A stretch of DNA of 64,000 nucleotides, taken from positions 1 through 64,000 of the forward strand of contig NZ_SMKL01000021.1 in the NCBI RefSeq assembly GCF_004348545.1, in the 5' to 3' direction. The notes under the pieces are model-generated. The model searched no databases, was not told the origin of the DNA, and saw only the letters and a program-made list of their open reading frames with translations. Below, in pieces: positions 16,569-22,024 of this stretch. The position numbers and the translations under genes are program-made. The DNA comes from Jiangella ureilytica. Its GTDB lineage: Bacteria; Actinomycetota; Actinomycetes; Jiangellales; Jiangellaceae. Positions within the stretch are counted from its first letter, which is position 1, and each line of letters opens with the position of its first letter.

Positions 16569-16937
16569 TCAGTCGAAGGTCAGCAACGCATCGACGTCGA
16601 CGGACACCGGGAACGGCCGTTCGAGTGTGATGACGCCGGAGCCGCGGGCGACCTCTTTGTACGTGCCACCGACCAGCTCGTACGCGACGAACCGGCCGTC
16701 GTCGACCGCCGCCGGGTCGATCCGCGGCACATTCAGGTGCGCCTGCGCCCGCGGGAACATGACGACGTCCGGGCAACGCTCCGTCGGTGGGAACTGCGCC
16801 TCGATGGTCACGCCGATGTGCTGAAGGGCGACCAGGCCGTCGGGTGGCTGCGCGTCCAACCGGTTGGCGTCGGTCTCCTCGATCGCATCCCACTCCTCGA
16901 CGGTCAGGAGCTCGTTGGGCACCGTGACAGTCGTCAC
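16569..16937 (-). pseudogene. degenerate Uma2-family (PD-(D/E)XK) endonuclease
   Basis: 122 residues from GTG 16937, which has a strong GGAGGAA site. It keeps the Uma2 start (LTVEEWDAIEETDANR), the PDVV strand (CPDVVMFPR) and the end (YELVGGTYKEVARGSGVITLERPFPVSVDVDAL). The segment between PDVV and YELV, which should carry the catalytic E-x-K and the YA..GIP..W motif, is missing, and the part before PDVV is shortened. A normal member is about 190 residues. It is probably an inactive internally deleted copy, although the frame is still open. Confidence 0.65.
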
Positions 16938-17081
16938 CGGTTCCTCCTTCGCTCGATGTCGTTCTGACCGTCGATTCATACCGCCACGATACGCGGATCG
17001 GCACCTTCACGCGTGTGCCCGAATCCGCCGGCCCGGTTGCCCGGACCGGCAGATTCGTGGTTCAGAAACGTGCCCTACCGA

Positions 17082-17936
17082 TCAGTTCCCCAGGCCGACG
17101 TGCGAACCGGGCAGCAGGACGTCCGCCTTCACCGGCAGGTGGTCCGAGGCGTCGGTCGTCACCACCGCGGCCGTCCGGGTGATCACGTCTTCGGACGTGA
17201 GGACGTAGTCGATGCGGGCGTTCGGGTCCTCGACCGGGTAGGTGTAGCCGTCGCCGACGCCGGCCTCCTCCCAGGTGTCGACCAGCTCGTCGACGAGTGT
17301 CCGGATCTCCGGCGTGTCCGGCCTGGCGTTGAGGTCGCCGAGCAGGACCACCGATTCCGACGGCTCGCCCATGAGCTCCTCGATGGCCGCGACCTGCTCC
17401 AGCCGCTCGTTGGCGTCGTTGTGCTGCAGGTGGGTGTTGTAGACCGTCACCCACACGCCGCGCACGTTGATGCGGGCGCGCAGCAGGCCGCGCTGCTCGT
17501 GTCCCTCGTACCGGGGCAGGAACGTGTTGTCCCACTCGCGGATGGGCCGCTCGCTCAGGATGGCGGTGCCGTACTGCCGCCGCGGCTGGCCGGGCTGGAG
17601 CGGGTCGAGGTCGAGGTTGGCGCCGTAGACGACGTGCATGTCCAGTTCGTCGGCCAGCCAGGCGGCCTGGTCGACGAAATCACTGCGCTCGCCCCAGTGC
17701 CGGTCGACCTCCTGCAGGCCGACGACGTCGACGCCCTCGGTCTTGATGACGTCGGCGACCCGCTGCAGGTTCAGCAGGCCGTCCGTTCCGACGCCGTGGT
17801 GGATGTTGAAGCTCATGACCGTCAGCGGCCGGTCGCGCGGCGACGGGCCGGCCGACGACGAGGCGGGCTGTGCGGTCGCTGCCATCAGTCCCAAGACTGC
17901 CAGAGCGGCGGTCAGTGCGGTGCGGAGCATGCGCAT
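17082..17936 (-). CDS. secreted endonuclease/exonuclease/phosphatase (EEP) fold protein
   Basis: 284 residues. A signal peptide is visible (MRMLRTALTAALAVLGLMAATAQPA). The EEP core follows: TVMSFNIHHG, DVVGLQEVDRHW (catalytic Glu), GTAILSERPI, NTHLQH, VLLGDLNARPDTPE, RIDYVLTS and a final SDHLPV. These are the metal and phosphate ligands of DNase I, sphingomyelinase and inositol phosphatase relatives; which substrate is used cannot be told. ATG 17936 is preceded by AAGGGA; an ATG two codons later is an alternative. Single gene, 83 bp from the large caspase/helicase gene. Confidence 0.9.
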   Translation of the reverse strand: MRMLRTALTAALAVLGLMAATAQPASSSAGPSPRDRPLTVMSFNIHHGVGTDGLLNLQRVADVIKTEGVDVVGLQEVDRHWGERSDFVDQAAWLADELDMHVVYGANLDLDPLQPGQPRRQYGTAILSERPIREWDNTFLPRYEGHEQRGLLRARINVRGVWVTVYNTHLQHNDANERLEQVAAIEELMGEPSESVVLLGDLNARPDTPEIRTLVDELVDTWEEAGVGDGYTYPVEDPNARIDYVLTSEDVITRTAAVVTTDASDHLPVKADVLLPGSHVGLGN

Positions 17937-18019: not shown

Positions 18020-21000
18020 TCAGTCGATGAGCCCGTCGATCGGCGCGCCGGACCGCACCTGCCACGTCGGCACCCGCAGCACCTTCGTCACCGGCGGCAG
18101 CCCCGACTCCGGCACCAGGCCGGTCAGCAGCCGGCGCCGGCGCAGCAGCAGCCGCAGGTGGCGGGCGGCGTCCTCACCCGGCCAGCCGCGGTCGAGCAGC
18201 ACGGCGATGCTCCCCGACGGCGTGCGCACCAGCACGTCGACGCGGTAGCCGTCGACGACGGCGTTCGGCTCGACCTCGGTGTGGCCGGCGGCCGCGAGCC
18301 GCTCGCAGAGCGCCTCGACGAGCGGGTCGGTGAAGACCGCGGACTCGATGGGCGCCGGCGGGTTCGGCCGCACGTGGAAGGACCGGACCGACGACATCCG
18401 GGCGAGCAGCGCCGGCAGCCCGGCCTGCCGCGACCAGAACCCGTGCTGCCCGACGGTGACGACGTGCGCCCGGGTGCGGGCGACGGCGCCGCTCCACAGC
18501 GCGGCCTGGCCCTGCGCCCAGCGGACCGTCTGGGCCGGCATGTCCTCGCCGGCCACCAGCGACAGCACGACGGCGTCGCAGTCGATTGGCTCGCCGTCGC
18601 CCACGCAGGCCACCGGCACCGGCTCGAACCGGAACAGCGACCGCAGCTCGTCGGCCTGTGCCCGGAACGGCGTGACCACGGTGACGGTGGCGTCGTCGGG
18701 GAGCTGCTCGCGCAGTTCCTTGACCGCCCACACGACGCGGTCGATCTCGGCCTGGTTGCGCCACGAGCCGCCGTTGGCGCCGCGCTCGGGCGTGCCGGTG
18801 ACGTCCTCCCAGAGCAGCAGGGTGGCGTCGCCGGTCTCGGGGTCGAGCGCCCGGGGCAGCGCGCCGACGTCGGTGACGACGGTGAGCCGCCCCCCGTAGC
18901 AGTGCTCGTCGACGATCCGCGCGATGCCGGGGTGCGAGCCGTCGTGCTCGTCGAGCAGCAGCGGCTCCTCGACATTGGGCAACGCGGCGTCGTAGACGGA
19001 GTCGCCGCGGAACGACAGCCGCCGCTCGGCGAGGAACCCGGCGGAGAGACCGGCGGCCCGGCGGGCGCGGCGCAGCCGGTGGTCGCTGAGGCCGGGCGCG
19101 CGCAGCTGCTGGCGCGGGTCGCCGATGACCAGCGCCCGGCGCGCGCGGAACAGCAGCGGCAGCGCGGCCGGCACCGGCGCGCGGTGCGCGTCGTGGAGGA
19201 CCACGAGGTCGAACATGCCGGCCTCGAGCGCCAGCTGCCCGGCGTCCTCGAGCGTGACGGCCCAGCCGCCCAGGTGACTGAGCAGATCGCGGTGGCTGGC
19301 CTGCCGGTTCCGGCCGCCCGGCTCCAGCGCGATGCGCCGTGCCTCGAGCCGCTCGCGGGCGGTCGCGGCCTGCTCGCCGACGACCACGGAGACCAGCTCG
19401 GCCGACAGCTCCGCCACCCGGGCCGCCAGCTCGCGGCCCTCGCGGTCGAGCGCGTCGTCGGTGACGGCGAGCACCTCGCGCTTGTCCTCGCGCAGCCGCT
19501 CCTCGGCCCGCGCGAACAGCAGCAGGGTGTCGTAGGCGGCCGGGTCGAGCAGCGCCTCGCGGATGGTGTCGCCGTCGGCACCGGCCTCGCTGACCGCGTG
19601 CACGAACGCGAGCACCAGGTTGCGCCGGCGCAGCCCGCTCATGAGGTGGGTCTCGGTGAGGGTGCGCGCGCGGTCGATCCAGTCGCTCAGCCCGGCGTCG
19701 TCGGTGCGCCACGCCGCGGCCAGCACGTCGGCCGGCACGCCGAGCCGCTCGGCCGCCGTCGCCCGCGCCGTCGTGGTTTTGCGCATGAGGATCTCGAGGT
19801 CGTTGCGCTCGTTCAGCCGGTAGCGCCAGGCCTTGACCTGGGCCTGCGTGGCGGCCAGCTCGGTGGCGACGGTGCCCCGGGCGCGGCCGCGCCGCTCGTC
19901 CTTGGTGGAGCGCAGCAGCTCGCGGACCACCTGCTTCTCCTCGGCCCGCGCCTGCGCGTCGCCGGTCTTGATGAGCAGGCCGGTGGTGAGGTCGCCGCAC
20001 CGGCCGGCCAGCCGCTGCAGCGCGGCGTCGTCGGCCGAGGCCACCAGCACCTTCTGCCCGGCGGCGACCGCGGTGGCGACGACGTCGACGATGACGTCGT
20101 CGGCCCCGGTGCCGGGCGGCGCGGTGACGACGGTGAGCGGCCGCGACATGGCCGCGGCGACCACGGCCTCCTGGCTCTCGTTCAGCTCGGCCGGGAGCAC
20201 GGGCGCGACGGCGGAGCGGGTGGTGGTGCGCATCCCGACCGGCTTGCCCAGAAACTCCAGCGCCGTGCCCGGCACGTCGTCCAGCCGCTCGGCCAACTCG
20301 CCCAGCTCGGCGCCGACGGCCTGCTGGGCGGCGCGGTCGGACTCGACGTACAGCACGCCGGCGGTGTTGTGCACGCCCGTGCGATTCGCGGCCTTCGGCT
20401 CGATGCCGCCCAGCGCGGCCGGGTCCAGCTCGTCCAGCTCGGCCAGCCCGAGCCGCTTGACCAGCTGGCGGATCGCCACCAGCATCTGGTCGCGGTCGCC
20501 GGCCTTCCAGCTCTGCCGCCAGGCCGCCAGCACGCCGGCCGCCTCTTGGTCGTCGAGGCAGGCCTGCAGCACCCCGGCGTGCGGCAGCACCGGGCCGGTG
20601 GGGCGCAGTGCCGCTGCCCCGCGGGCGTCGACGGTGACCTCGGCGCGGCGGACCAGCAGCGGCGCGACGGTCGACGTGGCGAGCGGATCGCCGGAGTTGC
20701 GGCGGCCGGCGCCCGCGAGCGTGACGAGCGGGTACCCGTACCAGACGTCGCGCTCCTTCCAGTCGAACGTGTCGACGCCGGCGGGCGCGAGGGCGGTCGT
20801 TTCGGCGCCGCTGAGCAGCAGCTCGGCGCCGTCGGACATGGGGAACCAGTCGGCGGCCTCGCCGGTGCGGCTGGGCATCGCCTCGGGCGACGGAGCCTCG
20901 GCGAGGCAGGCGCGGTAGTACGCGATGACCTCGCGCCAGCCCGGGTCGGCGACCTGGTCGCCGTGCTCGCCGTCGGACGCGCCGGCGCCGCCGGCGCCCG

Positions 21001-22024
21001 CGGCGGCGGGTGGCGCGATGGTCGCGGTGGCGCCGCCGCCCTTGCCGCCCTCGGGACCGCCGCCGCGCACGCCGTCGCCGTCGCCGTCGAGCAGGCTGAG
21101 CGCCCGCACCGCGGACCGCGCGATGACGTGGTTGCCGGCGACCGCGAGCGTCGACGTGGCCGGCAGCTGCTCGGCCGGGACGCCCTGATCGGTGAGCCGG
21201 GCCGTCAGGTACGTCGCGAGGTCGTCGGCGGTGACCCACGGGCCGAGGCCGCGCTTGACCCGTCCGGTGCGCAGCCCTTCGACGATCTCGCCGGTGAACC
21301 GCGACGTACCCAGCTGCGTGACCGGCTCCGCCATGGCGGCCGCCGGCTGCGGCACCTGCGAGGCCGAGATCACGTAGACGCCGGCCGGCTCGAGCATGAC
21401 CTGGCGGCGTTGGACGGCGAACCGGTCGGTCTCGGCGCCCGGCAGGCAGGCGTCGAGGAGCACGACCTTGCTGGCGGCGCGCGACTCCTGCAGCTGGTCG
21501 CGCAGGAAGTCGGCCGGGACGGCGGTGCGCTCGAGATCGGCCGGGTCGGTGTCGGCGGCGGCCAGGTAGAGCCGGCCGTCGGCGGCGGACACCTGCGCGT
21601 ACCCGGTGAGGTACACGATGACGGTGTCGGCCAGCGCACGCTCGTCGAGGAACGTCTCGACGGCCCGCATGATCTCGCCGCGGCTGCCGTCGGGGACCAC
21701 CTGGCACGTGTCGACCATGCCCACGTCGGCACGCTCCAGGACCTGGCGCAGCTGCCGCAGCCCGGCCGCCGCCGTGGGCAGCAGCGGGTAGCCCGCGTGG
21801 TCGTACACCGCGGTGCCGATGAGCAGGGCCGCGCGGTCGCCCGCGGGCAGCTGACGGCGGTCCGGCACGACCGGCGCGACGGCGGAGTCGGCCGCCGACG
21901 GGAACCGCAGCGAGGCGTCCGGGGTGCGCCGCGACGACGCCGGGAGCGTGACGGTGGCCGGTCGGACTGCGACGAATCGATTGCGGGCATGATCGGTTCG
22001 CACATTCATCGACAGCTCGTTCAT
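18020..22024 (-). CDS. caspase-like / SF1 helicase-like / nuclease-like fusion with replaced catalytic residues
   Basis: 1334 residues. Residues ~62-300 look like a peptidase C14 (caspase) domain: DRAALLIGTAVYD, VIVYLTGYAQVS, KVVLLDACLPG, then GPWVTADDLATYL; the expected GHG His is replaced (GYA, 141-143) while Cys193 of DAC remains. A Gly-rich linker is near 318-352 and an unassigned middle follows. An SF1 (Upf1/Dna2-like) helicase core begins LNESQEAVVAAA: its Walker A reads PPGTGADD (636-643), with Ala for the essential Lys; the Walker B region reads LHDAH (943-947); GDPRQQL, VTPFRAQADEL and ARTRAH are kept. The last ~100 residues resemble the restriction-endonuclease-like domain of helicase-nuclease proteins (YRVDVLV), without a clear E-x-K. 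ATG 22024 has a GGGAG site. Cytoplasmic; role unknown, perhaps a defence-derived sensor. Confidence 0.75.
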   Translation of the reverse strand: MNELSMNVRTDHARNRFVAVRPATVTLPASSRRTPDASLRFPSAADSAVAPVVPDRRQLPAGDRAALLIGTAVYDHAGYPLLPTAAAGLRQLRQVLERADVGMVDTCQVVPDGSRGEIMRAVETFLDERALADTVIVYLTGYAQVSAADGRLYLAAADTDPADLERTAVPADFLRDQLQESRAASKVVLLDACLPGAETDRFAVQRRQVMLEPAGVYVISASQVPQPAAAMAEPVTQLGTSRFTGEIVEGLRTGRVKRGLGPWVTADDLATYLTARLTDQGVPAEQLPATSTLAVAGNHVIARSAVRALSLLDGDGDGVRGGGPEGGKGGGATATIAPPAAAGAGGAGASDGEHGDQVADPGWREVIAYYRACLAEAPSPEAMPSRTGEAADWFPMSDGAELLLSGAETTALAPAGVDTFDWKERDVWYGYPLVTLAGAGRRNSGDPLATSTVAPLLVRRAEVTVDARGAAALRPTGPVLPHAGVLQACLDDQEAAGVLAAWRQSWKAGDRDQMLVAIRQLVKRLGLAELDELDPAALGGIEPKAANRTGVHNTAGVLYVESDRAAQQAVGAELGELAERLDDVPGTALEFLGKPVGMRTTTRSAVAPVLPAELNESQEAVVAAAMSRPLTVVTAPPGTGADDVIVDVVATAVAAGQKVLVASADDAALQRLAGRCGDLTTGLLIKTGDAQARAEEKQVVRELLRSTKDERRGRARGTVATELAATQAQVKAWRYRLNERNDLEILMRKTTTARATAAERLGVPADVLAAAWRTDDAGLSDWIDRARTLTETHLMSGLRRRNLVLAFVHAVSEAGADGDTIREALLDPAAYDTLLLFARAEERLREDKREVLAVTDDALDREGRELAARVAELSAELVSVVVGEQAATARERLEARRIALEPGGRNRQASHRDLLSHLGGWAVTLEDAGQLALEAGMFDLVVLHDAHRAPVPAALPLLFRARRALVIGDPRQQLRAPGLSDHRLRRARRAAGLSAGFLAERRLSFRGDSVYDAALPNVEEPLLLDEHDGSHPGIARIVDEHCYGGRLTVVTDVGALPRALDPETGDATLLLWEDVTGTPERGANGGSWRNQAEIDRVVWAVKELREQLPDDATVTVVTPFRAQADELRSLFRFEPVPVACVGDGEPIDCDAVVLSLVAGEDMPAQTVRWAQGQAALWSGAVARTRAHVVTVGQHGFWSRQAGLPALLARMSSVRSFHVRPNPPAPIESAVFTDPLVEALCERLAAAGHTEVEPNAVVDGYRVDVLVRTPSGSIAVLLDRGWPGEDAARHLRLLLRRRRLLTGLVPESGLPPVTKVLRVPTWQVRSGAPIDGLID

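What the first reader, a model, noticed from the sequence alone, without database searches (positions are those of the whole stretch)
18020..22024. Giant caspase/helicase/nuclease fusion that seems catalytically dead in all three domains
One 1334-residue protein combines a caspase-like domain, an SF1 helicase core and a C-terminal nuclease-like domain. At each key position the expected residue is missing: GHG is GYA (141-143), Walker A Lys is Ala (GTGADD, 639-643), Walker B reads LHDAH, and the nuclease lacks a clear E-x-K. Flanking conserved segments (DACLPG, GDPRQQL, VTPFRAQ, RVDVLV) remain and codon use is normal, so this is not a decaying pseudogene. A conserved pseudoenzyme of this architecture, perhaps a defence sensor or an inhibitor of an active paralogue, would be new to me.
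Basis: partly seen in the sequence, partly recalled or inferred. Interest (0 to 1): 0.82.

Follow-up and report, generated by a model that had tools for sequence, protein, structure and literature searches.

The report
Conserved dead caspase-helicase protein
A soil bacterium carries a giant protein built from a protein-cutting domain and a DNA/RNA-motor domain that have both lost their catalytic parts, yet its relatives have kept the protein under selection, so it probably works by binding rather than by catalysis; a cousin of the motor died independently in another bacterial family.

Summary
The 1334-residue ORF is real (minus strand, 18020-22024). It carries an EACC1-type caspase domain, an insert, a UPF1-like SF1 helicase and a divergent MTES_1575-like C-terminal domain. 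The host belongs to Jiangellaceae. Orthologues occur in 12/12 same-genus genomes and 2 of a sister genus, in conserved synteny, with dN/dS about 0.2. Caspase His->Tyr (GYA) and loss of the Walker A Ser/Thr and of motif V are family-wide. Walker A Lys->Ala occurs in only two species and Walker B Asp->His only in the window, so decay is stepwise. The 'dead nuclease' is not a loss here: E-x-K is missing in intact relatives too, and D1263, D1278 and W1321 are invariant everywhere. Intact relatives (GHG, DCC, GTGKS, DEASQ, FQGGE) exist; the nearest lies directly behind an EACC1 gene, a published two-gene conflict system. Jiangellaceae have no detectable EACC1 and no caspase paralogue, so 'inhibitor of an active paralogue' is unlikely. 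A second actinomycete lineage independently lost the same helicase motifs and the whole caspase, but kept the insert, helicase fold and C-terminal domain. Best reading: an exapted, non-catalytic binding/scaffold derivative of an EACC1 caspase-helicase system.

The parts
18020..22024 (-). CDS, 1334 aa, pseudo-caspase / pseudo-SF1-helicase protein (start ATG at 22022-22024, stop 18020-18022)
   Evidence: start supported by conserved MNE/MSE start in orthologues
21188..21832 (-). Caspase domain (residues 65-279), EACC1-associated type
   Evidence: NF047832 140.7 bits (same place in six-frame search); fold match to MALT1 paracaspase, TMt 0.71 to 3v4o_A
21596..21604 (-). Residues 141-143 GYA in place of the catalytic His motif GHG
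   Evidence: codons GGG TAC GCG; GYA in all 14 orthologous genomes; GHG in intact relatives
21446..21454 (-). Residues 191-193 DAC: catalytic Cys193 retained
   Evidence: Cys in 13 of 14; DCC/DSC in intact relatives
20225..20959 (-). Insert ('middle') region, residues 356-600, kept in both dead lineages
18365..20224 (-). UPF1-like SF1 helicase core (residues 601-1220), motifs degenerate
   Evidence: Pfam AAA_11/AAA_12; AlphaFold pLDDT 86.1, pTM 0.86; Foldseek UPF1/SMUBP2/Senataxin
20096..20122 (-). Walker A region, residues 635-643 APPGTGADD (intact relatives GPPGTGKSx)
19184..19201 (-). Walker B region, residues 942-947 VLHDAH (intact relatives VIDEAS)
18575..18613 (-). Degenerate motif V (residues 1138-1150; intact relatives VGTVHxFQGGERD)
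18467..18499 (-). Degenerate motif VI (residues 1176-1186; intact relatives LWNVAITRARS)
18023..18352 (-). C-terminal domain (residues 1225-1334), restriction-endonuclease-like order of elements, divergent MTES_1575-like; D1263, D1278, W1321 invariant in all groups
17082..17936 (-). Downstream gene, secreted-type endonuclease/exonuclease/phosphatase family; always next to the orthologue in Jiangellaceae (linkage only, role unproven)

Best explanation
The protein descends from the caspase-helicase component of an EACC1-type two-gene conflict system (membrane-associated EACC1 gene followed by a caspase fused to an effector, here a UPF1-like helicase with a REase-like tail). On the stem of Jiangella plus Haloactinopolyspora no EACC1 partner was retained, the caspase His became Tyr, and the helicase lost the Walker A Ser/Thr, motif Ia, motif V and parts of motifs III and VI (shown by comparison). 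Lys641 and Asp944 were lost later, in the lineage leading to the window. What is selected is therefore the folded protein (shown: purifying selection, invariant framework) and not proteolysis or ATP-driven translocation (inferred from motifs). Most likely it acts as a non-catalytic binding or scaffold protein: the insert, the helicase shell and the REase-like tail hold a nucleic acid or a protein partner, possibly as a sensor or decoy (inferred).
For: Orthologue in 12/12 same-genus and 2/2 sister-genus genomes, no stop inside any. Conserved synteny across both genera. dN/dS 0.16-0.33 overall, 0.22 between the two species that have both lost the Walker Lys. Positions invariant in intact relatives are lost mainly in the motifs: 35 of 45 motif positions against 36 of 113 others, Fisher p 1.7e-7. 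Intact relatives with GHG, DCC, GTGKS, DEASQ, GDPMQ, FQGGE and NVAITRA. The nearest (L027; 98/98 support) sits directly downstream of an EACC1 gene. No EACC1, Peptidase_C14 or second caspase_w_EACC1 found in the Jiangellaceae genomes tested. Folds predicted and matched.
Against: No experiment. Nucleic-acid binding is not shown, and motif Ia and V positions that contact nucleic acid in SF1 helicases are also changed. 12 of 14 orthologues keep the Walker Lys, so nucleotide binding without hydrolysis is possible in most of the genus. Caspase Cys193 is kept in 13/14. The C-terminal domain might still be an active nuclease. NG86 dN/dS is rough at GC3 above 90%.
Confidence: 0.72

Rival explanations
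1. Defence sensor or decoy: the dead enzyme still works in phage defence, for example as bait for a phage inhibitor of caspases or helicases, as proposed for inactive effectors of related conflict systems.
For: The nearest intact relative is in an EACC1 system. Kaur et al. 2020 (PMC7159879) describe inactive effectors in related systems and suggest decoy roles; EACC1 systems are described as one N-terminal caspase with many different C-terminal domains.
Against: Fixed chromosomal locus, vertical inheritance, one copy per genome, no detectable EACC1 partner and no defence genes recognised among the flanking genes scanned. Strong overall constraint rather than fast evolution, except the linker 311-355.
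Confidence: 0.3
2. The C-terminal REase-like domain is the surviving active part: a nuclease using D1263 and D1278 with a non-standard third residue, with caspase and helicase shells kept as regulatory or targeting modules.
For: D1263, D1278 and W1321 are invariant in intact and both dead lineages; the element order fits a restriction-endonuclease-like core; 8 of 18 members match PF18741 MTES_1575 weakly.
Against: No member has E-x-K or another conserved Lys there. The Pfam matches are far below cut-off (best E 0.004). Invariant Asp can be structural.
Confidence: 0.25
3. Inhibitor or dominant-negative partner of an active paralogue.
For: General precedent of pseudoenzymes that regulate active relatives (established knowledge).
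Against: No second copy and no other caspase in the genome. Only one other AAA_12-type helicase in the window's genome (G000:C91:88568, about 1160 aa).
Confidence: 0.06
4. The protein is still an active ATPase or protease with displaced catalytic residues.
For: Cys193 retained in 13/14 and the Walker Lys in 12/14 orthologues.
Against: The His is replaced by Tyr in all; Walker A Ser/Thr, motif V and R1029 are lost in all. No Lys lies near the window's P-loop.
Confidence: 0.06
5. Pseudogene in early decay, or an assembly artefact.
For: Asp944->His is unique to the window.
Against: No stop inside in 14 genomes, dN/dS about 0.2, conserved synteny. The window copy differs from its sister species by ordinary codon changes.
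Confidence: 0.02

Closest known systems
EACC1 two-gene conflict system (System 4 of Kaur et al. 2020, eLife e52696, PMC7159879)
   Same: N-terminal caspase of the EACC1-associated type fused to a large C-terminal effector; the nearest intact relative lies directly downstream of an EACC1 gene.
   Different: No EACC1 gene in the Jiangellaceae genomes tested; protease and helicase sites lost; vertically inherited single-copy locus. The passages of that paper that I read do not describe a UPF1-like helicase fused to this caspase.
Pseudo-orthocaspases (Front Plant Sci 2019, PMC6426788)
   Same: Catalytic His replaced by Tyr in a bacterial caspase fold.
   Different: Those are mostly alphaproteobacterial and cyanobacterial; only 3 of 636 actinobacterial sequences were pseudo-variants. 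The known types are YS and YN; here Cys is kept (Y-C), fused to a dead helicase.
UPF1/SMUBP2/Senataxin-type SF1B helicases
   Same: Same fold and domain order of the helicase core.
   Different: Motifs I, Ia, II, III, V and VI degenerate.
Pseudo-helicases: RecC/AddB (general knowledge) and PriA of Deinococcus (PMC4504706)
   Same: A helicase fold kept without ATPase or helicase activity, as a binding/scaffold part.
   Different: Different helicase families; those are parts of DNA repair or replication-restart machinery with known partners.
Mokosh MkoA and DUF4011-type defence helicases (ProA, Hhe)
   Same: Weak profile similarity of the helicase part.
   Different: Bit scores far below the NCBIfam family cut-offs for ProA and Hhe; different N-terminal domain.

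Membership tests
EACC1 two-gene conflict system | Caspase domain of the EACC1-associated subfamily | tested here: met
   NF047832 140.7 bits against cut-off 140; 144 bits in the six-frame search
EACC1 two-gene conflict system | Adjacent 5' gene encoding EACC1 (PF19953) | tested here: not met
   No PF19953 match in 6 Jiangellaceae genomes incl. G000; no EACC1-like ORF in the gap upstream of the gene. It is met in the nearest intact relative. Divergent EACC1-like partners of other relatives also escape PF19953, so a very divergent copy elsewhere is not excluded.
EACC1 two-gene conflict system | Catalytic His/Cys dyad able to release the effector | tested here: not met
   His->Tyr in 14/14 genomes, Cys kept in 13/14
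SF1B helicase (UPF1-like), active | Walker A GxxGxGK[S/T] | tested here: not met
   GTGADD in the window; Ser/Thr missing in 14/14
SF1B helicase (UPF1-like), active | Walker B DE | tested here: not met
   HD in the window, DD in most, DE in one orthologue
SF1B helicase (UPF1-like), active | UPF1-like fold | tested here: met
   AlphaFold pTM 0.86; Foldseek best matches UPF1, Senataxin, SMUBP2
Pseudo-orthocaspase | p20 caspase fold lacking the His-Cys dyad | tested here: met
   fold; GYA
MTES_1575 / PD-(D/E)XK nuclease | Profile match above cut-off | tested here: not met
   Window E 0.008, 16.6 bits against cut-off 38.2; 8 of 18 relatives match weakly
MTES_1575 / PD-(D/E)XK nuclease | D ... (D/E)-x-K/D active site | tested here: inconclusive
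   D1263 and D1278 invariant, third residue missing in all relatives

The most novel reading that the evidence does not exclude
Two actinomycete lineages independently turned the caspase-helicase of an EACC1 conflict system into a non-catalytic chromosomal binding protein: one keeps a dead caspase (Jiangellaceae), the other lacks it and in 4 of 5 cases sits beside an Fpg/Nei-type DNA glycosylase gene. In both, the insert, the helicase shell and the REase-like tail are what selection keeps: repeated exaptation of an immune motor into a catalysis-free nucleic-acid sensor or scaffold.
Probability: 0.4. Interest if true: 0.75.

Novelty: new variant of a known kind. Interest (0 to 1): 0.6.

Why it matters
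Pseudo-caspases and pseudo-helicases are each known, but a single conserved protein that carries both, with intact relatives in a predicted immune system and a second independent loss of the same helicase, is a natural experiment on which parts of a conflict protein matter without catalysis. It makes a testable prediction: the insert, helicase shell and C-terminal domain bind something, and binding survives loss of ATPase and protease.

Tried and rejected
Active paralogue in the genome: none with a caspase. Plasmid copies: only caspase-domain matches, none full length. One shared origin of the two dead helicase lineages: rejected by the AU test, p 0.0004, with the motif columns left out of the tree; the grouping was named after seeing the sequences, so the p-value is indicative. 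Empty-site test in a related genus without the gene: the downstream marker gene lies in unrelated surroundings there, so gain and loss cannot be told apart. Profile search of the C-terminal domain against solved structures: only de novo TIM barrels and other matches that I regard as chance. Wider homologue sampling failed for technical reasons.

Full report
WHAT IS THERE. The gene lies on the minus strand, 22024 down to 18020, 1334 codons. The window belongs to a genome whose relatives are Jiangella and Haloactinopolyspora. Residues 65-279 match the NCBIfam model for caspases associated with EACC1, and the AlphaFold model of residues 52-560 (pLDDT 76.7) matches the MALT1 paracaspase. Residues 556-1334 are modelled with pLDDT 86.1 and pTM 0.86 and match UPF1, Senataxin and SMUBP2. 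The last 110 residues follow the element order of a restriction-endonuclease-like core and resemble Pfam MTES_1575 weakly but repeatedly.

WHICH SITES ARE LOST, AND WHEN. In 14 genomes (12 same genus, 2 sister genus) I aligned the orthologues. In all: caspase GHG is GYA; the Walker A Ser/Thr is gone; motif V (FQGGE in relatives) is erased; the R of YRCHP is Gly. In 13 of 14 the Walker B Glu is Asp (DD in most, HD in the window), while one Haloactinopolyspora copy has canonical DEAH. Lys641->Ala is found only in the window and its sister species, Asp944->His only in the window. Cys193 of the caspase is kept in 13 of 14.

COMPARISON WITH INTACT RELATIVES. A search of 395 genomes of the class gave full-length relatives with canonical motifs. 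Of 158 positions invariant in these, motif positions are kept in all eight representative Jiangellaceae in 10 of 45 cases and other positions in 77 of 113 (Fisher p 1.7e-7; I set the motif borders from standard SF1 motifs after seeing the alignment). The motif I/Ia and II/III windows are the most conserved part of the helicase in intact relatives but only average in Jiangellaceae. Overall dN/dS is 0.16-0.33.

ORIGIN. In a tree made without motif columns, Jiangellaceae are sister to L027 with 98/98 support. In that genome an EACC1 gene (PF19953) lies directly upstream of the caspase-helicase gene. Five other intact relatives have a small ORF touching or overlapping the start of the caspase gene, with a hydrophobic, small-residue-rich stretch like EACC1, though without a Pfam EACC1 match. 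[quoted passage not shown] 2020 (PMC7159879). The Jiangellaceae genomes tested have no detectable EACC1, no other caspase, and the gene sits in conserved synteny. The locus is therefore a chromosomal derivative and not a mobile defence cassette.

A SECOND DEAD LINEAGE. L037-L040 and L042 are relatives from another family without the caspase (no significant caspase-profile score), but with the insert (E 1e-16 to 1e-37), helicase shell and C-terminal domain. Their Walker A reads GSGAHD, GAGGAE, GTGDDT, GSGLND, GTGADQ. They form a separate clade, and joining them with Jiangellaceae is rejected (p 0.0004). Four of the five lie next to an Fpg/Nei-type DNA glycosylase gene.

HOW IT WORKS. Shown: loss of motifs, selection, vertical inheritance; fold by prediction. 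Inferred: no protease or ATPase activity; function by binding. The parts kept in both dead lineages (insert, helicase shell, REase-like tail) are the best candidates for the binding surface. In the tail, D1263, D1278 and W1321 are invariant in intact and dead members alike, and E-x-K is missing in all of them. Hence the tail is either a scaffold throughout the family or a nuclease with an unusual site; it is not a third loss in Jiangellaceae.

JUDGEMENT. A conserved double pseudoenzyme derived from a predicted immune system, with an independent parallel. Each ingredient has a precedent (pseudo-orthocaspases; inactive effectors; pseudo-helicases); I found no report of the combination or of the repeated loss in the papers I could search.

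Noticed in passing
L037, L038, L039, L040, L042 (and L052-L054): Caspase-less homologues with an independently degenerate SF1 helicase; in 4 of 5 the gene lies beside an Fpg/Nei-type DNA glycosylase gene.
   Followed up: partly
window 17082-17936: Endonuclease/exonuclease/phosphatase family gene with an apparent signal peptide, always directly downstream of the orthologue in Jiangellaceae; a role together is unproven.
   Followed up: partly
window 16569-16979: Small ORF (136 aa) that aligns to orthologues of about 200 residues with gaps; the window copy seems to carry an internal deletion.
   Followed up: no
G000:C91:88568-89101 (genome of the window): The one other AAA_12-type helicase of the genome, about 1160 aa, with similar-sized counterparts in the other Jiangellaceae searched; activity and role not examined.
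   Followed up: no
L044, L045, L047, L048, L049: Small ORFs touching or overlapping the start of intact caspase-helicase genes look like divergent EACC1 but miss the Pfam EACC1 model.
   Followed up: partly
window 20960-21094 (residues 311-355): Gly/Ala-rich linker after the caspase domain evolves fast (dN/dS up to about 1) while its surroundings are constrained.
   Followed up: no
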